NCBI GenBank assembly: GCA_944349855.1
Contig: CALVNS010000014.1
Coordinates: 1 to 60,967, forward strand
Reading direction: 5' to 3'
Length of the DNA stretch: 60,967 nucleotides
Source: an uncultured Eubacteriales bacterium
GTDB lineage: Bacteria > Bacillota > Clostridia > Christensenellales > Aristaeellaceae
A model generated the notes under the pieces. The model made no database searches and was not told where the DNA came from. It worked only from the letters and a program-made list of their open reading frames with translations. Below are positions 10,890 to 18,360 of this stretch, piece by piece. Each line of letters opens with the position of its first letter. The stretch's first letter is position 1. The position numbers and the translations under genes were made by a program.

Positions 10890-11747
10890 TCATTCCTCGC
10901 CTTCCTTGTGCTCCGCGCCGTTGGCAAGCGCCTGCGCGTAGCGTGGCGACATGGACTGCGTCGAGAAGAGATAGACCACGCCGTTGAAGGCAGCCGTCTC
11001 TTCGATGTCGGAAAAGCCTTCGCGGCGCTTGAGCTCCGTGAGTGCGCGGTCGATCTGCGGCTTGGTGTAGCTGTATGGATGGCGCATGAAGTAGTACAGC
11101 GGCGTGGGCGCCGGGTACGTCTTGCAGTTGAAGCGCACCATCTGCGCAATCGTGCGGGGGATGTCCTTGTCCTCGATGTAGGCTGCGATCATGGCGTAGT
11201 TGTGCGCCATTGTCGCGTCGGAGTAGTAATACGTATCCCGTTCGCCGTGGACGGCCTGAATGTCCGCACAGGATTCGATTTCGGCCATCTGCGCGAGCAG
11301 CTCTTCCCAATGCTCATCCTCCTGGCGGATCAGCGCCAGCGGCGTGAGCTGTGCGGCGACCGTGCGCGCACGGATGAAATCGGCCAGCAACTCGGCGGGC
11401 GTCTTTTCCGGGGCTGGGCACGGCTCCGCCGGCGGAGAGGGCGGGAAGGGATCCTCCACTTCGGGCAATGATTCCATGTAGTCAAGCAGGTCGACCGTGC
11501 CGTGCGGCGCGTTCATCTCGGGCTCACCGGGCTGCCCGGAGGGATCGCCCTGCTCCACATTTTCGCCGCGCACGATGCGCGAGAGGACCGACGAGGCCTT
11601 CTGCTGCATGTCGATCTTTTCGGCCTTGGGGTTGTCCGCCCGGTTGGCGGCGGGGTCGAGCGCGTCGTTGAACTCGCCGGAAATTTCGTTGGGCTTGAGC
11701 TCGACTTCCTTGGAGAAGCCGGGCTTGCGCCTGCCAAACAAAGACAT
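10890..11747 (-). CDS. Conserved-looking hypothetical protein
   Basis: I do not recognise this 285-residue protein. It has no signal peptide or membrane segment. The N-terminal third is charged and low in complexity; a short stretch of prolines (PFPPSPPAEPCPAPEK) separates it from a globular C-terminal half rich in Tyr and Phe, including DTYYYSDATMAHNYAMIAAY and YYFMRHPYSYTKPQIDRAL. The middle contains two short helical stretches. ATG 11747 with AAGGAG nine bases upstream is preferred over the in-frame TTG at 11756. It has its own strong promoter and precedes the MATE promoter in the same direction, so the two are separate units. Confidence 0.75.
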   Translation of the reverse strand: MSLFGRRKPGFSKEVELKPNEISGEFNDALDPAANRADNPKAEKIDMQQKASSVLSRIVRGENVEQGDPSGQPGEPEMNAPHGTVDLLDYMESLPEVEDPFPPSPPAEPCPAPEKTPAELLADFIRARTVAAQLTPLALIRQEDEHWEELLAQMAEIESCADIQAVHGERDTYYYSDATMAHNYAMIAAYIEDKDIPRTIAQMVRFNCKTYPAPTPLYYFMRHPYSYTKPQIDRALTELKRREGFSDIEETAAFNGVVYLFSTQSMSPRYAQALANGAEHKEGEE

Positions 11748-11779
11748 GGCTTTCAACTCCTTGCTGGTGTCATGTGAAC

Positions 11780-11808
11780 AGTATACGGGCTGCGAATACG
11801 CCTGTCAA
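11780..11808 (-). promoter_or_regulatory. Promoter of the hypothetical gene at 10890
   Basis: Minus-strand TTGACA and TATACT are 17 bases apart, a near-consensus sigma-A promoter ending about 30 bases before the start codon. Confidence 0.8.
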
Positions 11809-11853
11809 TGCGTCGCCAGAGCGAACAAAAACGAGGCAACGTGCTGAATTTTG

Positions 11854-11884
11854 AAGGATTGGACGGCGCTGCACGCGTCTAATG
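11854..11884 (+). promoter_or_regulatory. Likely ECF-type autoregulated promoter
   Basis: CGTCTAA at 11878-11884 resembles the -10 element of many clostridial ECF promoters. A possible -35 element TGAAGG lies 18 bases upstream and a second TGAATT a few bases before it. The position, directly ahead of the ECF sigma gene, suggests autoregulation. The -35 is not consensus, so this is tentative. Confidence 0.5.
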
Positions 11885-11911
11885 GGTGAAAGACGAAAGG
11901 AGGGGGACCTG

Positions 11912-12427
11912 ATGGATGCGCTGGAGAAGGAGCGCACGCTCGCGCGCCTGATGGAGCGCCACGGCGACGCCATCGTGCGCCTGTGCACGCTGCACCTGCG
12001 AGACGCGCAGCTCGCCCAGGATGCGGCGCAGGAGACGTTCCTCAAGGCGTATCGCGCGCTGGAGCAGTTCAGGGGCGAGAGCAGCGAGAAGACGTGGCTT
12101 TCCCGCATCGCGATCAACACCTGCCGCAGCATGCGGCGCAGCGCCTGGTTCCGCCTGGTGGACCTGGGCGCGCTGCGCGAGAGCCTGCCCGCACCGGAGC
12201 AGCCGTTCGGCGTGGAGGAGGATGAGATGACGTTTGCCATTGCAGGGCTGCGCGCAAAGTATCGGGAGGTGATTCTGCTCTACTACTATCAGCAGATGAG
12301 GGTTGCCGAGATCGCACAGGCGCTGGGCATCCCGGAAAAGACGGTGTCCACGCGCCTGTCGCGGGCGCGGAACATGCTCAGGCTCAGGCTCGAAGGAGGG
12401 AAAGTCGATGATACCGCGCGTGCGTGA
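11912..12427 (+). CDS. RNA polymerase ECF-type sigma factor
   Basis: ECF sigma factors redirect RNA polymerase to stress genes and are held inactive by a membrane anti-sigma. The 171-residue product has region 2 (residues ~18-85: LHLRDAQLAQDAAQETFLKA is region 2.1-2.2, then KTWLSRIAINTCRSMRR) and region 4 (residues ~110-165: LRAKYREVILLYYYQQM then IAQALGIPEKTVSTRLSRAR, the -35 recognition helix-turn-helix). ATG 11912 follows AAGGAGGGGG. The stop overlaps the next gene by 20 bases, coupling it to its likely anti-sigma. Confidence 0.94.
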   Translation: MDALEKERTLARLMERHGDAIVRLCTLHLRDAQLAQDAAQETFLKAYRALEQFRGESSEKTWLSRIAINTCRSMRRSAWFRLVDLGALRESLPAPEQPFGVEEDEMTFAIAGLRAKYREVILLYYYQQMRVAEIAQALGIPEKTVSTRLSRARNMLRLRLEGGKVDDTARA

Positions 12428-13568
12428 GGCGATTGACGCGCGTCTCTCCGGCGTGCGGGTGAGCCCGGAGGACAGGGCGCGCGTGCTCGAACGCGCGCGA
12501 AAGGAGGAGGAACACATGCGCAAGAAGATCTCGACGGGTCTGGTGCTGGCGTTGGCGCTGACCGCGCTGTTGGCGGGCACGGCGCTCGCGGCCGCCGGCG
12601 GCATCTTTGAATTTTTCGCCGGACGGGATGCAGGAATCGGCCTGGAGCCGCTGGAGCAGAACCTCGCCGGGGCGGCTGTCGCCGCCGGGCAGACGCTGCT
12701 CCAGGATGAGGTGGAGTTGACGGTCGAGGAGTCGTACTATGACGGAGAGACGCTGTATCTCAGCTGGTCCATCGGCGGACAGACGCGCACGGAGGAGCCC
12801 TGGACGCCCGACGCCGCGCAGCTGGAGGCGATGGAGGCGACGCAGGCCGAATACCTGGATGTGGAGCTTTCGCCGGGGACGGGCGTGTTGGTGACGACGG
12901 TCTCCGAGGGCGACGGCCTGAATCTGGCCGACGGCACGTACATCAACCCCTCGATGGGTGATTCCAGCGTGCTGGAGGATGGCACGCGCGTGAACTGGAT
13001 GCGCTACGAGACGCCACTGCCGGAGGCGGCGCGCCAGCAGCAGGGGCTGGACCTGGTGATGACGCTGTACCGGACCCAGACTGCCTATTACATGGATGCG
13101 GACGGCGCAGCCTATGTCATGAGCCTGTCGCATGAGCGCGAGGAGCTGCCCTTCCGCATTGAGTGCACCGATGCCACGGCGCAGGCGACGGCAAGCGCCT
13201 CGTTTGAAAACTACACGGCGGAGTGCACGATCACGGCGGGCATCCTGAACAACGTCGCCGTCCATGCGAACGTCGTCCTCACCGGCATGCCGGCGGAGTG
13301 GTATGATGCGGTCGTCAGCATGGAGGATGCGGCGGACGCCGTCTACAGCTACAGACTCTACATCGACGGGGAGATGTGCCAGAAGTTTGACGCCTGGCTC
13401 GGCGGAGACGCGACGCGCCTGGAGCTGTGGTTCGGCTTCATCCAGCCGCCGCTGCCCGAGACGGACGAGAACACATTCACCTTGGTGCCCGTCTACACCC
13501 AAAGCGGCGAACGGCCGGAGGAGGCGCTTCAGGGCGTGATCCGGTACCCCGCGGCGGTCAACATCTGA
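12408..13568 (+). CDS. Membrane anti-sigma factor-like protein with DUF4179-like extracellular part
   Basis: The 386-residue product has a short cytoplasmic N-terminus (IDARLSGVRVSPEDRARVLERA, residues ~9-30), one membrane segment (residues ~44-64) and a ~320-residue extracytoplasmic domain rich in beta strands (ELTVEESYYDGETLYLSWSI near residues 103-122). This layout, directly after and overlapping an ECF sigma gene, is that of the clostridial sigma/DUF4179 pairs in which the cytoplasmic tail binds the sigma factor. Start ATG 12408 follows AAGGAGGGAAAG. What the outer domain senses is unknown. Confidence 0.8.
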   Translation: MIPRVREAIDARLSGVRVSPEDRARVLERARKEEEHMRKKISTGLVLALALTALLAGTALAAAGGIFEFFAGRDAGIGLEPLEQNLAGAAVAAGQTLLQDEVELTVEESYYDGETLYLSWSIGGQTRTEEPWTPDAAQLEAMEATQAEYLDVELSPGTGVLVTTVSEGDGLNLADGTYINPSMGDSSVLEDGTRVNWMRYETPLPEAARQQQGLDLVMTLYRTQTAYYMDADGAAYVMSLSHEREELPFRIECTDATAQATASASFENYTAECTITAGILNNVAVHANVVLTGMPAEWYDAVVSMEDAADAVYSYRLYIDGEMCQKFDAWLGGDATRLELWFGFIQPPLPETDENTFTLVPVYTQSGERPEEALQGVIRYPAAVNI

Positions 13569-13631: not shown

Positions 13632-15791
13632 TCAGATCAGGCCGAGCTCTTCGAGCTTGTCGGCCGCATCGGCCAGGCCGAATTTTTCGAGCGTCTCGCG
13701 GGTCGGAATGCCGGTCTCCTTGTCCCAACCCATGGCCTCGTAGAACATATCCAGCGATTTCTCCCAGTCCTCGCGGTCGAGCTTGACCGTGCCTTCCTCA
13801 AAGGGCTTGAAGTCGGGCTCCTTGTCGAACACCCAATCCGACACCTTGTCGTGATCCTGGCGCAGGTTGGAGCTGTCCAGATTCAGCTTGAAGGAGATGG
13901 CCGTCATGGCGCGCAGCAGCTGCGAGATGCGTTCGGACATGAACTCGATGTCCTCGCGCGTGTAGTCCTCGCCCACAACTGCGGACATGTACTTGGCGTC
14001 CAGATCCAGATCGCCGATGTACTCGCGCTGCTTGGAGGGCGAGATCGTCATCGGGTACATCCAGTTGCACAGCGTGGCGCTGTCGTGCCATTGCTTGCCG
14101 TTGAACGCCCACTTGGCAACCTTGATCTTGTTCTCGTTGATGGGCGTATAGGCCTTCTGCTTGTCAAAGCAGCCCTCGCCGAAGAAGTGCTCCATGACGC
14201 GCTTGTTCACCGCTTCAAACGGCGCGCCGTTGGAGGTGACGTTGATCATGTGGTGCACCATGCAGTCGCGGTTGTACATCATGCTGTACAGCGTGCCTGC
14301 CTGCCAGCAATTTTCCGGGCCATGGTGGCGCGGATAACCGTTGTGGCCGATGTTGAAGTTCTTGCCGTGCACGAAGTCGTAGAAGTTGACGCCTGCCACA
14401 TTCTTGGACGCGTCGTCCATGCCCCACTTTTCATAGAGCCTATAGGTGCCCAGACCCAGGTCGCTGAACACGCCTTCCTTCATCGCGATGCGGCGGTAGC
14501 ACTCGTACACCCAGCGCGGGTCGCCGTCCTTCATCAGGTCCCACGGGATCTCGTTCCACTCGTCCTCGGGGATGACATCCTGCAGGACGCCCGTGGTATA
14601 GGCCATGTTGAAGTCCTCGTAGAGGTTGCCATAGTTGCACCACACGCCGTACTCGTCCGCAGCGCGTGCGCCGGCGCCGCCCAGGATCATCTTGGCGTCG
14701 CCCTCGTCGACGAAGTCCTTGGTCCCTTCGGGATACCATTCGGCCATCTTGATGATGGGCATGCAGGTGTTGGACACATGCGTGGGCAGGTCGTAATCTG
14801 CCAGCGGATCCATGTCATACTCGGTGTAGCAGCGCACCGGACAGGAGGAACAGCCGCCCACCTTGACGGTATACTTGGTCGAAATCTCGCCAAAGTCGAA
14901 CACGCCCTTGTTGCAGCGCATGGCGGCCACGTTGATCTGGCCGACCGGCTGCTCGCCCGCGGAGATGGGGCCGCCGGGGGCCTTTTCCCAGTGGATGTGC
15001 GGCGCGCCTGCCCAGCGGTTGGCGCTGGTGGCGGAGTACTCGGCCCAGGACTGCGGATATGTCGGCACGGGGTGGTTGTTGTTGCCGCCGACGAGCTCTT
15101 TGATCATGTAGTTGGACAGGAGCCTGACCTCGGTGGGACGCGCCACCTTGACAGCGCCCGTGCCGCGCACGACCAGCGCCTTGACCTTCTTGGAGCCCAG
15201 CAGCGCGCCCACGCCGCCGCCGCCGGAGTTGCCAAACGAGGTGACCATACAGCTCATGGGCACGAGGTTTTCACCGGCCTGCCCGATGGAGACCACGTCG
15301 AACTCGTCGCCGTTTTCCTTGGCGAGCGTGGCGTTGGCCTCAAAGGTGCCCTTGCCCCACACATGGGAGGCATCCTCGATGGAGACCTTTTCATCTTCGA
15401 TCTTGATATAGACGGGCGCGGCGCTCTGGCCCTCGACGATCATGGCATCGTAGCCGGCGTACTTGAACGCGTGCGCAATATGGCCGCCCATATGGGCGTC
15501 GATGATGGAATAGCCCTTGGACCAGCAGGACAGGAACGAGACGTTCATGCGGCCGGAGCAGGGGACGCCCGAGGCCGTCAGCGGCCCGACCGCAAACACG
15601 ACCTTCGAGGCTTCGGACAGCGGATCGGTGTCCAGGGGCACTTCGTCAAAGATGACCTTGTAACCCAGGCCCATGCCGCCGATGTAATCCTTGTACTTGG
15701 GCAGCGTATCCTCTCTGGTGATGGAACCGGTGGTCAGGTTGACGCGCAGCACCGTACCCGCCCAGCCGTTAATGCCATTGAGAACGGACAT
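13632..15791 (-). CDS. Tungsten/molybdenum pterin aldehyde ferredoxin oxidoreductase, YdhV/WorL-like large subunit
   Basis: AOR-family enzymes oxidise aldehydes or related substrates using a bis-pterin tungsten (or molybdenum) cofactor and one 4Fe-4S cluster. The 719-residue product begins in family style (GWAGTVLRVNLTTGSI) and shows PLTASGVPCSGRMNVSFLS and the cluster motif GGCSSCPVRC near residues 311-320, with the distant fourth cysteine probably near 573 (LCNWMYP). It is longer than classical AOR (about 600-620) and closer to YdhV-type proteins of about 700. No export signal is visible. It follows its ferredoxin partner by 90 bases, with AAAGGAGG before ATG 15791. The substrate cannot be read from sequence. 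Confidence 0.92.
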   Translation of the reverse strand: MSVLNGINGWAGTVLRVNLTTGSITREDTLPKYKDYIGGMGLGYKVIFDEVPLDTDPLSEASKVVFAVGPLTASGVPCSGRMNVSFLSCWSKGYSIIDAHMGGHIAHAFKYAGYDAMIVEGQSAAPVYIKIEDEKVSIEDASHVWGKGTFEANATLAKENGDEFDVVSIGQAGENLVPMSCMVTSFGNSGGGGVGALLGSKKVKALVVRGTGAVKVARPTEVRLLSNYMIKELVGGNNNHPVPTYPQSWAEYSATSANRWAGAPHIHWEKAPGGPISAGEQPVGQINVAAMRCNKGVFDFGEISTKYTVKVGGCSSCPVRCYTEYDMDPLADYDLPTHVSNTCMPIIKMAEWYPEGTKDFVDEGDAKMILGGAGARAADEYGVWCNYGNLYEDFNMAYTTGVLQDVIPEDEWNEIPWDLMKDGDPRWVYECYRRIAMKEGVFSDLGLGTYRLYEKWGMDDASKNVAGVNFYDFVHGKNFNIGHNGYPRHHGPENCWQAGTLYSMMYNRDCMVHHMINVTSNGAPFEAVNKRVMEHFFGEGCFDKQKAYTPINENKIKVAKWAFNGKQWHDSATLCNWMYPMTISPSKQREYIGDLDLDAKYMSAVVGEDYTREDIEFMSERISQLLRAMTAISFKLNLDSSNLRQDHDKVSDWVFDKEPDFKPFEEGTVKLDREDWEKSLDMFYEAMGWDKETGIPTRETLEKFGLADAADKLEELGLI

Positions 15792-15881: not shown

Positions 15882-16511
15882 TCAGACCTGCTGCGCCGCT
15901 GCGGTAACGTCGTCCCACAGCACGATGGAGAGCGCGCCGGACGGACAGCCTTCCACGCAGGCGCCGCACATCACGCACTTCGAGGATTTTTTCGTCGCAG
16001 GGTTGACGGTCGGCATATGCCACGGACATGCCTGCGTGCAGGCGCCGCAGCCGACGCATTTTTCCGCGTCGACGCGGCGAATGCCGTCTTCCCCGGCGTA
16101 GATGGCGCCCATTGGGCAGGCGTTTCCACAGGCCGGATCGGCGCACTGGCGGCAGGTGTCGGGGAAGTATACCCAGTTGTTTTCCGTGTACAGGCCGTTG
16201 CCGTTGCGGCTGGAATAGAGGTTGCGCGTCACCTTTACGCGGGAAATGTAGGACGAGCAGCACCCGTCGTTGGTCAGCGTGCAGTTGATTTCGCATCGCT
16301 GACAGCCGACGCACTTGTCGGCATTGACGACGAGCAGGCCCTGCGGAAACGCCCACGTGGTGACCTTCCCTTCGGCGACGGCCTGGGCCGTCACGCCCAT
16401 CACGGAGAGCATGGAGCTGGACAGCGCCAGGCCCGCCAGGCTCTTGCCGGACAGCTTGAGAAACTGGCGGCGCGTGTAGTCCTTGTCGAGGAACCGGGTC
16501 TTATCAGCCAT
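15882..16511 (-). CDS. Tat-exported four-cluster ferredoxin, YdhY/WorS-like electron-transfer subunit
   Basis: The 209-residue product starts with a twin-arginine signal (TRRQFLKLSGKSLAG, residues ~13-27, then a hydrophobic core ending in AQAVA near 49). The mature part carries four 4Fe-4S motifs: CVGCQRCEINC near 65, CRQCADPACGNACP near 117, CVGCGACTQACP near 152 and CVMCGACVEGCP near 178. This resembles DmsB/YdhY-type electron-transfer subunits. ATG 16511 follows AAGGAGGAAGAG; upstream in-frame codons lie in the structured leader and are unlikely starts. It is first in the operon with the oxidoreductase and sits opposite a tat operon, which fits its signal peptide. Confidence 0.93.
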   Translation of the reverse strand: MADKTRFLDKDYTRRQFLKLSGKSLAGLALSSSMLSVMGVTAQAVAEGKVTTWAFPQGLLVVNADKCVGCQRCEINCTLTNDGCCSSYISRVKVTRNLYSSRNGNGLYTENNWVYFPDTCRQCADPACGNACPMGAIYAGEDGIRRVDAEKCVGCGACTQACPWHMPTVNPATKKSSKCVMCGACVEGCPSGALSIVLWDDVTAAAQQV

Positions 16512-16552
16512 TGTCTCTTCCTCCTTGTCGATCGCTTGCGGAAAACGCATGC

Positions 16553-16696
16553 AAAAAGGAGCGCGTAAGACGGCACGCCCATGCGCGTGGTGCACGGCGC
16601 CGCGTCTACGAGCTCCTTCGCAATGGTGGCGGGCACGCCGGTCGCCCAGCGCACCCATCGGCCCTGGCGACCCGAAGGGCCGCAAGGGCGCGGAGC
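16553..16696 (-). promoter_or_regulatory. Probable Moco/Tuco-family riboswitch with overlapping terminator
   Basis: The leader of the ferredoxin-AOR operon holds two mutually exclusive folds. Fold 1: GCTCC at 16696-16692 pairs with GGAGC at 16616-16612, closing a compact ~85-base domain with an inner helix GGTCGCC (16672-16666) / GGCGACC (16646-16640). Fold 2: the same GGAGC pairs with GCTCC at 16562-16558, extended by CGTA-GAC / GTC-TACG, followed by TTTTT at 16557-16553, a rho-independent terminator. So the aptamer-like domain acts as an antiterminator. The 5' CTCCGCGCC and the 3' CCACC with AAGGAG resemble, from memory, the Moco RNA family. That assignment is inference; the switch architecture is seen directly. 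Confidence 0.68.
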
Positions 16697-16721
16697 GTTT
16701 TCACTTTTTTTGGATAATCAA

Positions 16722-16751
16722 AGTATAACATATCCATTGACCACAGCGCAA
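16722..16751 (-). promoter_or_regulatory. Promoter of the ferredoxin-AOR operon
   Basis: Minus-strand TTGCGC and TATACT are 18 bases apart with an extended -10 TGT. The transcript would start near 16715, giving a ~200-base leader that contains the riboswitch-like element. Confidence 0.65.
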
Positions 16752-16986: not shown

Positions 16987-17337
16987 ATGTTTAATGTCGG
17001 CGCGGCAGAGCTGATCCTGATCCTGCTGGTCGCGTTTATCGTGGTGGGCCCCAAGGATCTGCCCAAAGTCGCCCGCGCCCTGGGACGTTTTGTCCGCTAC
17101 ATCCGCTCGTTCATCGAGGAGGTCAAGCGGGAAACCGGCTGGGGAGATCTGACCGAGGGCTTCAAGGAGGCGCAACAGGACGTACAGGATACGCTCAGGC
17201 AGGCGGACGTCAGCAAGGAGCTGAAGGATTTCCGCCATGAGGTCAATCGGGACGTCAACGCGATCAAGAAGGACCTTCGAAAGGACGCCAACGAGGTCAA
17301 AAAGGACATCCAGGAAGACATCAACCAAAAGAAATGA
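16987..17337 (+). CDS. Tat translocase TatA/TatB-like subunit with long coiled-coil tail
   Basis: The 116-residue product has the TatA/B layout: a short outside part, one membrane helix (AELILILLVAFIVVGPKDLP, residues ~7-26, with the conserved hinge GPKDLP), an amphipathic helix (VARALGRFVRYIRSF) and a long, highly charged C-terminal helix. The GP rather than FG hinge and the longer tail are closer to TatB than to the TatA that follows. In Gram-positive systems one TatA often does both jobs, so a separate TatB-like protein is noteworthy. Start ATG 16987 follows GGGAAGAGGG. It forms an operon with the next two genes. Confidence 0.88.
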   Translation: MFNVGAAELILILLVAFIVVGPKDLPKVARALGRFVRYIRSFIEEVKRETGWGDLTEGFKEAQQDVQDTLRQADVSKELKDFRHEVNRDVNAIKKDLRKDANEVKKDIQEDINQKK

Positions 17338-17356: not shown

Positions 17357-17551
17357 ATGAGACTGGGTACGACGGAAATCATCCTGATTCTGGTGCTGGC
17401 GCTGGTGCTCTTTGGCGGCGGCAAGCTGGCTGGCGTGGGCAAGGCCCTGGGCCAGAGCATCAAGGACTTCAAGAAGGAAGTCAAGGAAGACGACTCCAAG
17501 CCGGATGAGGACAAGAAGGACGAAGATAAGAAGGACGAGCCGCAGGCGTGA
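17357..17551 (+). CDS. tatA: Sec-independent protein translocase TatA
   Basis: The 64-residue product is a typical TatA: TTEIILILVLALVLFGGGKL gives the membrane helix with the conserved FGxxKL hinge, followed by an amphipathic helix (GVGKALGQSIKDFKKEV) and a short acidic/lysine tail. TatA oligomers form or line the pore for folded proteins with twin-arginine signals. It lies 19 bases after the TatB-like gene and its stop touches the next reading frame. Start ATG 17357 follows GGGGGAGG. Confidence 0.95.
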   Translation: MRLGTTEIILILVLALVLFGGGKLAGVGKALGQSIKDFKKEVKEDDSKPDEDKKDEDKKDEPQA

Positions 17552-17577
17552 GCCGCGGCCCTTTTTCGGAGCGAGCC

Positions 17578-18360
17578 ATGCGCAAAACACAGACAAGCAA
17601 TGATACCCCCCAAACCAATGCAAACGCCGCGCGCCAGGATGCCCAAGAGCGTAAACAGCCGATCCTGACGCACCTGCTGGCGCTGCGCAAGACGCTGGTC
17701 ATCAGCTTTGGCGCAATCGCCGCGGCGTTCGTGCTGGTCTTTTATCTGGCGTGCGGATATTTGATGGACTTCATCACCACGCCCATCGTCGAGCGTGGGG
17801 TGGAGATCATCTATACGGCCGTATCCGAGGCGCTGGTCACCCAGCTCAAGGTGTCGCTGATCGCCGCCGTCGTCGTGGCCAGTCCCGTGGTGTTCTGGCA
17901 GGTATGGGTGTTCATCAAGCCTGCGCTCTATCCCAATGAGAAGCGCATCTTTAAACGCCTGTTCTTCCTGGCGCTGATGCTGTTCCTGATGGGCGTGGTC
18001 TTTTGCTACCGGGCCGTGTATATGTTGGCGCTCGATTTCTTCCTCGTCTCGGGCGAAAACTTGGCTACGCCGATGCTGTCCATCGACAAATACGTCGGCT
18101 TCCTGTTTTCGTTTGTGCTGCCTTTCGGCCTGGTGTTTGAGCTGCCGGTGGCCATCTACATGCTGGCGCGCGTGGGCCTGGTCAACTACGAGATGCTGAG
18201 CAAGACGCGCAAGTTTGTCATTCTGGCCATCTTCATCATTGCGGCAATCCTGACGCCTCCGGACATCGTCTCGCAGGTGATGTTGGGCGTTCCGATGCTC
18301 CTGCTCTTTGAGGTCGGCGTGCAGGTTTCGCGCTTTGTCAAGCCGCGGGAACGCTCATGA
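17578..18360 (+). CDS. tatC: Sec-independent protein translocase TatC
   Basis: TatC is the receptor for twin-arginine signals. The 260-residue product has about six membrane helices and family motifs: the cytoplasmic start HLLALRKTLVISFG (residues ~37-50), the segment SPVVFWQVWVFIKPALYPNEK with the conserved FWQ..W.F..PALY.NEK pattern near 102-122, and the last loop ILTPPDIVSQ. ATG 17578 is chosen with CGGAG upstream; a GTG at 17548 overlapping the tatA stop would add ten residues. Its operon is divergent from the gene for a Tat-signal ferredoxin, which is likely a main cargo. Confidence 0.94.
   Translation: MRKTQTSNDTPQTNANAARQDAQERKQPILTHLLALRKTLVISFGAIAAAFVLVFYLACGYLMDFITTPIVERGVEIIYTAVSEALVTQLKVSLIAAVVVASPVVFWQVWVFIKPALYPNEKRIFKRLFFLALMLFLMGVVFCYRAVYMLALDFFLVSGENLATPMLSIDKYVGFLFSFVLPFGLVFELPVAIYMLARVGLVNYEMLSKTRKFVILAIFIIAAILTPPDIVSQVMLGVPMLLLFEVGVQVSRFVKPRERS

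What the first reader, a model, noticed from the sequence alone, without database searches (positions are those of the whole stretch)
16553..16696. Cofactor riboswitch-like leader controlling a tungsten/molybdenum oxidoreductase by antitermination
Seen: the GGAGC at 16616-16612 can pair either with GCTCC at 16696-16692 (closing an 85-base structured domain) or with GCTCC at 16562-16558 (forming a terminator with TTTTT). The gene downstream makes an enzyme that needs a tungsto- or molybdopterin cofactor. Known: Moco RNA motifs control molybdopterin genes, and variants near tungsten enzymes have been proposed to sense the tungsten form. Inferred: ligand binding stabilises the antiterminator, so the apoenzyme is only made when its cofactor is available, an ON switch placed on a consumer gene.
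Basis: partly seen in the sequence, partly recalled or inferred. Interest (0 to 1): 0.82.

Follow-up and report, generated by a model that had tools for sequence, protein, structure and literature searches.

The report
ON-type cofactor riboswitch for YdhV-like enzyme
An RNA switch related to the known molybdenum/tungsten-cofactor riboswitches sits in front of an aldehyde-oxidoreductase-type operon and appears to let the enzyme be made only when its metal cofactor is present, the opposite polarity to what its sister switches on cofactor-supply genes appear to have.

Summary
The domain 16698-16610 is real: 57 distinct family homologues share it with strong covariation (21 of 29 pairs change on both sides), and all 57 precede a YdhY-like ferredoxin. 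It is a P3-less relative of the Moco/Wco RNA. Rfam RF01055 misses the window copy but scores 8 of 31 family loci above cut-off and 7 below it, and a model built only from these leaders finds the host's two true Moco RNAs. It differs from the common form: GCAA/GCGA instead of GAAA on P4, no 11-nt receptor, GC/GC P5. Polarity looks ON: in the family the terminator's 5' arm is the P1 3' strand in 29 of 57 (6 OFF-like), whereas weaker, mostly Moco-type elements on other genes give 20 OFF-like and 3 ON of 41. The enzyme is YdhV-like; no TupA-like match was found in any of 51 carrier genomes, so the metal may be molybdenum. Ligand binding is untested.

The parts
16722..16730 (-). extended -10 promoter element TGTTATACT; transcription predicted to start near 16715
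   Evidence: sequence; a -10-like box lies within 60 nt upstream of 55 of 56 family elements against 19 expected in mononucleotide shuffles. The generic scanner did not list it.
16610..16698 (-). aptamer-like domain (whole R1 match), P3-less Moco/Wco-RNA relative
   Evidence: R1 83.0 bits, E 4.7e-20 (the window is one of the 11 sequences of the model); covariation
16692..16696 (-). P1 5' strand GCUCC
16661..16689 (-). P2 hairpin (outer stem 16689-16685/16665-16661, distal stem with CC:GG and a wobble pair); no CCUAAG/UAUGG receptor
16631..16656 (-). P4 hairpin, GCGA tetraloop at 16645-16642
16620..16630 (-). P5, G16630-C16620 and C16629-G16621 (GC/GC where common Moco RNAs have CC/GG)
   Evidence: 57 of 57 family elements keep both pairs; the RF01055 alignment maps this place to P5 in the 4 relatives shown
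16612..16616 (-). switching strand GGAGC: P1 3' strand or base of the terminator 5' arm
16553..16616 (-). intrinsic terminator hairpin (16616-16558) and U5 tract (16557-16553), predicted alternative to P1
   Evidence: the pattern scanner lists only its 3' part as a hairpin
16520..16526 (-). Shine-Dalgarno AAGGAGG of the first gene, outside the switch
   Evidence: sequence
15882..16511 (-). YdhY-like ferredoxin; a twin-arginine (RR) signal read by eye near its start
   Evidence: NF007382 238.5 bits against cut-off 213; Fer4 families
13632..15791 (-). YdhV-like aldehyde ferredoxin oxidoreductase family protein, the cofactor consumer
   Evidence: NF007354 891.8 bits against cut-off 868; AFOR_N and AFOR_C

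Best explanation
The leader is a compact P3-less cofactor riboswitch of the Moco/Wco kind that switches its operon ON. Shown by sequence comparison: promoter-proximal position, conserved P1-P2-P4-P5 fold with covariation, kinship with RF01055, strict linkage to ydhYV-type operons in the sampled members of this bacterial family, and a terminator whose 5' arm is the P1 3' strand. Inferred: when the molybdo- or tungsto-pterin cofactor (most plausibly the nucleotide-free bis-MPT form that AOR-family enzymes hold) binds the junction, P1 closes and holds GGAGC; the terminator then cannot form its base next to the U-tract, and polymerase reads into ydhY-ydhV. Without cofactor the terminator wins (about 10 kcal/mol more stable in the model) and the apoenzyme is not made.
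For: Covariation: 11-leader MAFFT alignment, score 0.520 against 0.234 shuffled and at most 0.172 slid; 57-element alignment 0.547 against 0.205 (fitted to the model). Kinship: RF01055 scores 8 of 31 family loci above 36 bits, 7 of 31 below it, and does not report 16 of 31, the window copy among them (E limits 1 and 0.1); its alignment maps P1, P2, P4 and P5 and deletes P3 in the 4 relatives shown. R1, built from the leaders only, has two other hits in the host genome at E up to 0.01, and they are its two RF01055 Moco RNAs (33.3 and 30.1 bits). Linkage: 57 of 57 distinct strong family elements lie upstream of the ferredoxin and 52 of 57 show the oxidoreductase in the DNA held; 0 of 41 weaker family hits do (3 of the 41 with under 1 kb of downstream DNA). 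The 11 AFOR loci of the family among 60 relatives are the 11 leader loci. Polarity: AOR-linked 41 ON against 6 OFF-like of 72, others 6 ON against 24 OFF-like of 76; second set 27 against 6 of 48. Energies.
Against: The window copy has no RF01055 match even at E 10. No ligand, binding or expression data. Platform calls come from secondary-structure rules: of 72 AOR-linked elements 11 had no terminator call, 7 were unclear and 6 OFF-like; in the second set 12 of 48 had none. The upper part of the terminator hairpin still forms when P1 is enforced, so kinetics matter. R1 was trained on oxidoreductase leaders, so its hits favour that subtype, and the counts are not phylogenetically independent. 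GC-type P5 elements not linked to AOR gave only 5 ON of 28, with 21 unclear or none. The host's xanthine-dehydrogenase-type enzyme has no R1 or RF01055 hit on its contig.
Confidence: 0.7

Rival explanations
1. Same RNA family, but an OFF switch as in the described E. coli Moco RNA: the GGAGC-GCUCC helix would be an antiterminator and some other structure the terminator.
For: Family precedent: repression in E. coli moaA (PMC2408646, sections 5 and 12); 6 of 72 AOR-linked elements get an OFF-like call, 5 of them because a later hairpin overlaps the first.
Against: In the window the U5 tract directly follows the helix that uses GGAGC, and the rule-based search gave ON with no later competing terminator; the OFF-like arrangement is seen at other genes of the same family (20 of 41).
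Confidence: 0.12
2. A metal-specific tungsten (Wco) sensor, as proposed for P3-less Moco RNAs.
For: P3 is absent; Regulski et al. link P3-less forms with tungsten users (PMC2408646 section 11); AOR-family enzymes other than the YdhV clade are described as tungsten enzymes (PMC12096430 passages).
Against: The enzyme is of the YdhV group, which E. coli loads mainly with Mo (PMC13328260 and PMC12096430 passages; PMC9103625 abstract); 0 of 51 carrier genomes had a TupA-like match while 5 of 5 controls did; the host's PBP_like_2 hit is PstS-like. But another YdhV-group enzyme preferred W (PMC13328260 passage).
Confidence: 0.25
3. A structured leader that senses something else (a pterin precursor, an aldehyde, a protein) and only looks like a Moco RNA.
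For: Three features of the common form have changed: tetraloop, receptor and P5; the ligand of the class had not been shown by direct binding in 2008 (PMC2408646 section 12).
Against: Homology by RF01055 and by the reciprocal model; relatives with the GC-type P5 stand before moaA, modA, a molybdopterin oxidoreductase and AOR genes in other phyla.
Confidence: 0.1

Closest known systems
Moco RNA motif, Rfam RF01055 (Regulski et al. 2008, PMC2408646)
   Same: P1, P2, P4 and P5 in the same order; CUCC/GGAG P1, GNRA loop on P4, AAGGAG 3' edge; control of Mo/W cofactor genes
   Different: No P3; GCAA/GCGA instead of GAAA, no 11-nt receptor, GC/GC P5; score below the Rfam cut-off for this copy; ON-like rather than OFF-like architecture
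P3-less 'Tuco'/Wco riboswitches (PMC2408646 section 11; listed as Wco in PMC9481103 and PMC9971707, passages)
   Same: P3 absent; linked to enzymes of the tungsten-enzyme family. Section 5 of PMC2408646 says that all four GCAA-loop Moco RNAs among 176 lack the receptor, so this subtype was glimpsed
   Different: Here a large group with GC/GC P5, linked in this family only to ydhYV-type operons, in genomes where no TupA-like match was found
Adenine riboswitch that disrupts a terminator (mechanism recalled; the title was seen only in the reference list of PMC9481103)
   Same: The P1 3' strand is part of the terminator, so ligand turns the gene ON
   Different: Unrelated aptamer and ligand

Membership tests
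Moco RNA RF01055 | Score at or above the Rfam gathering cut-off (36 bits) | tested here: not met
   Window: no match, none at E up to 10. Family loci: 8 of 31 met
Moco RNA RF01055 | P1, P2, P4 and P5 with covariation | tested here: met
   P5 is invariant within the family, so it is supported by position and conservation only
Moco RNA RF01055 | P3 stem (Moco type) | tested here: not met
   No room for P3: 4 nt between P2 and P4
Moco RNA RF01055 | GAAA tetraloop with an 11-nt receptor in P2 | tested here: not met
   GCGA loop and no CCUAAG/UAUGG in P2
P3-less Wco RNA | P3 absent | tested here: met
   P3 deleted in the 4 relatives aligned by Rfam
P3-less Wco RNA | Host or gene uses tungsten | tested here: inconclusive
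   YdhV-like enzyme; no TupA-like match in the host or in 50 other carriers; ModA present
Moco/Wco riboswitch | Binds the cofactor and changes expression | not testable with these tools
   Needs bench work

The most novel reading that the evidence does not exclude
The GC-type P5, the missing P3 and the swapped tetraloop contact mark an aptamer that reads the form of the cofactor (nucleotide-free bis-MPT, with Mo or W) rather than the metal, and its ON output makes AOR/YdhV-family apoenzymes only when that form exists, while GAAA-type sisters in the same cell shut down cofactor supply.
Probability: 0.2. Interest if true: 0.78.

Novelty: new variant of a known kind. Interest (0 to 1): 0.6.

Why it matters
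The ligand of Moco/Wco riboswitches was inferred from genetics, and the 2008 authors could not show direct binding. A compact, receptor-less, ON-like version with a simple terminator readout, beside ordinary Moco RNAs in the same genome, gives a natural matched pair for asking what these RNAs sense: Mo or W, mono- or bis-pterin, with or without nucleotide. It also links an enzyme class of unknown function (class V WOR, YdhV) to a cofactor-availability signal, and shows that the Rfam cut-off misses much of this subtype (23 of 31 family loci scanned).

Tried and rejected
DNA search of relatives with the bare leader gave, apart from the window itself, only short weak matches; protein-anchored leaders worked instead. 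Two terminator scripts were replaced by the stricter one, because the nearest-U-tract rule mistook antiterminators for terminators at canonical elements. A first count of the P2 wobble pair picked wrong registers; the refined one still misregisters some: A.C in 32 of 57, G.U in 5 directly, and 10 labelled C.G that look one step off in the examples printed; the model alignment has GU 17, GC 6, AU 3, UA 2, other 29. I use it only as a hint. In one search six weak or truncated R1 calls were dropped before counting (L111, L163, L169, L173, L174 and the second element of L159), two loop labels were corrected by eye (L099, L176), and elements under 70 nt had been left out (142 of 148 kept). The idea that P5 type alone marks oxidoreductase genes was rejected: GC-type P5 with GAAA or with P3 occurs before moaA and modA in other phyla. 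Three of the 80 pattern-scan loci have no R1 match at E up to 0.1 (L194, L231, L237), and L224, L242 and L248 score 21.4 bits or less, so the two archaeal rows are not supported. Paper search was swamped by rodents called tuco-tuco.

Full report
WHAT IS THERE. On the - strand the stated pairings are exactly where the finding puts them. The leader folds much better than dinucleotide shuffles (z -4.19, 0 of 200 as good). A TGTTATACT extended -10 element at 16730-16722 puts the start near 16715; a -10-like box occurs within 60 nt upstream of 55 of 56 family elements against 19 expected in shuffles. The first gene is a ferredoxin with a twin-arginine signal (read by eye) and its own Shine-Dalgarno sequence at 16526-16520, and the second is the oxidoreductase. 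NCBIfam names them YdhY-like (238.5 bits, cut-off 213) and YdhV-like (891.8, cut-off 868). TatB and TatC genes lie divergently upstream.

HOMOLOGUES. The ferredoxin was found in 8 of 60 relatives, 11 loci. All 11 upstream regions carry the same motif. On their MAFFT alignment the P1-P2-P4-P5 structure has 19 of 29 pairs with changes on both sides, and its covariation score is 0.520 against 0.234 in shuffles and at most 0.172 when slid. A covariance model, R1, built from these 11, matched 59 of 200 genomes of the family at E up to 0.01. The listed scores fall into two groups: 58 hits of 64 bits or more (in 51 genomes), one at 52, and the rest at 38.7 or less. The high group counted on 57 distinct elements gives 21 of 29 pairs with changes on both sides, score 0.547 against 0.205 (this alignment is fitted to the model). 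All 57 have the ferredoxin downstream and 52 also show the oxidoreductase in the DNA held; none of 41 distinct weaker family hits shows either, though 3 of the 41 have under 1 kb of downstream DNA and some of the 41 are probably chance. Conversely, the 11 AFOR loci of the family among 60 relatives are the 11 loci with the leader. The other two genomes with AFOR matches lie in other families of the order: G056 has a P3-less GAAA-type element (L121), and the broken G040 locus was not examined. R1 also matched 157 of 398 genomes of the phylum and 14 of 248 of the order at E up to 0.001, ordinary Moco-type elements included.

KINSHIP WITH MOCO RNA. RF01055 finds nothing in the window or in 451 bases of the leader at E up to 10. 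Of 31 family loci scanned, 8 score 36.9-47.1 bits (cut-off 36), 7 score 27.7-35.6, and 16, among them the window copy L033, are not reported. Of 20 further loci, 19 from other families and one (L103) of this one, 13 are above cut-off, 5 below and 2 not reported. Rfam's own alignments of 4 relatives pair P1, P2, P4 and P5 and delete P3. In the other direction, the host genome has two RF01055 matches with P3 stems (72.2 and 68.2 bits), and R1 finds these two as its only other hits there. I therefore take the leader as a divergent homologue, but do not file this copy as an RF01055 member, because the cut-off was tested and not met.

WHAT DIFFERS. Over 136 elements (after the exclusions told in Tried and rejected), non-GAAA GNRA loops go with oxidoreductase genes (69 of 75) and GAAA loops do not (2 of 58); 3 had no loop call. 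P5 is GC/GC in 70 of 75 non-GAAA elements and in 2 of 58 GAAA ones. By P5: GC type 70 with and 3 without the oxidoreductase; other types 2 with and 61 without. R1 was trained on oxidoreductase leaders, which favours finding that subtype. Regulski et al. already noted that all four GCAA-loop Moco RNAs of 176 lacked the receptor (PMC2408646, section 5 read), so the loop-receptor swap is not new in itself. R1 gave 87 matches in 77 of those 80 loci, a few of them chance, from Bacillota, Chloroflexota, Caldiserica, Thermus, Ignavibacteria, Kapabacteria, Alphaproteobacteria and a Leptospiraceae bin; 49 of the 87 have an oxidoreductase match within 4 kb downstream. In Thermus (modA) it occurs with what looks like a P3, and in Ignavibacteria, Alphaproteobacteria and the Leptospiraceae bin with GAAA and receptor-like letters before moaA or other genes. 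GC-type P5 is therefore not a pure oxidoreductase mark.

MECHANISM. In the window the P1 3' strand is the base of the terminator's 5' arm. A rule-based search over 148 elements gave, for 72 oxidoreductase-linked ones, 41 ON, 7 with the P1 strand complementary to the terminator 3' arm, 6 OFF-like, 7 unclear, 11 none; and for 76 others 6 ON, 24 OFF-like, 3 complementary to the 3' arm, 19 unclear, 24 none. Within the window's family alone: 29 ON and 6 OFF-like of 57 strong elements, 3 ON and 20 OFF-like of 41 weaker ones. On the filtered set the ON/OFF contrast is 41:6 against 5:21 (Fisher p about 1e-8, not corrected for shared ancestry). A second set from named genomes gave 27 ON, 6 OFF-like, 3 unclear and 12 none of 48 oxidoreductase-linked elements (3 of the 48 are identical to members of the first set); its 28 GC-type elements without a nearby oxidoreductase match gave 5 ON, 2 OFF-like, 10 unclear and 11 none. 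At many supply genes the same strand pairs with a terminator's 5' arm (antiterminator) or is itself next to the start codon, as in the Thermus modA leaders (sequences). Supply genes seen in the family include ModA-type, FecCD-type and Peripla_BP_2-type transport, MoeA, a MoCF_biosynth protein and MobB. This is what a cell would want: cofactor turns supply off and the consumer on. The polarity is inferred from structure, not shown.

LIGAND. The kinship and gene contexts point to a pyranopterin Mo or W cofactor. The YdhV group complicates 'tungsten': E. coli YdhV holds bis-Mo-MPT (PMC9103625, abstract), the group is said to prefer Mo (PMC12096430, passages), and class V enzymes with a Tat-signal small subunit are thought to be partly or mostly Mo enzymes, although one from an organism with TupABC preferred W (PMC13328260, passages). 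The host draft has one AFOR, one xanthine-dehydrogenase-type and no PF00384 enzyme. With a TupA-like protein as query (165 bits to the TupA model, below its cut-off of 400), 0 of 51 carrier genomes and 5 of 5 control genomes matched at E up to 1e-5. Drafts are incomplete and other tungstate importers exist. If these enzymes take Mo, then a P3-less RNA does not mean tungsten here, and the cofactor's form (bis-MPT) is an alternative discriminator.

LITERATURE. Nine searches were run. In PMC2408646 I read sections 5, 11 and 12 and passages; its figures, table body and supplements were not seen. Later papers seen as passages list Wco as a class (PMC9481103, PMC9971707, PMC7266159, PMC10043782). 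Passages of PMC3766115, PMC5317091, PMC6239172, PMC12121620 and PMC7653027 added no case of this kind; PMC12121620 reports that the E. coli Moco riboswitch modulates transcription termination. In what I read, none describes this subtype or an ON Moco/Wco riboswitch before oxidoreductase genes; most subscription papers are not in the library, so this is weak evidence of novelty.

Noticed in passing
window 16987-17337 (+) and 17548-18360 (+): TatB and TatC genes are divergent from the ydhYV operon, whose ferredoxin has a twin-arginine signal: likely an exported class V oxidoreductase in a Bacillota lineage.
   Followed up: partly
window 10890-13568: A YdhW-like gene (10890-11756, -; 151 bits, below its cut-off of 203) is separated from ydhV by + strand genes for a sigma-70-type factor (11882-12427) and a weak DUF4179 match (12303-13568).
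   Followed up: no
L159, L160, L161, L165, L167, L171: Two Moco-type elements in series within about 250 nt (tandem riboswitches), upstream of frames of about 275-295 aa that were not identified one by one.
   Followed up: no
L239 193-597 and L241 2615-3029: Two compact elements on opposite strands about 240 nt apart, in L241 both with an oxidoreductase downstream: divergent operons each with its own switch.
   Followed up: no
L198, L200 (Thermus): Leaders (L200 before modA) that combine a P3-like insertion, a GUAA or GCAA loop and GC-type P5, with the P1 3' strand beside the start codon.
   Followed up: partly
L002 1633-3128: A true RF01055 Moco RNA of the host genome precedes two reading frames (188 and 311 aa) without a Pfam or NCBIfam match: perhaps an unknown cofactor-related gene, or a miscalled frame.
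   Followed up: partly
L207, L255, L202, L187, L229: GC-type P5 elements with ON-like terminators; L202 precedes a molybdopterin oxidoreductase and L187 a rhodanese plus a 4Fe-4S protein: the ON form may serve other consumers too.
   Followed up: partly
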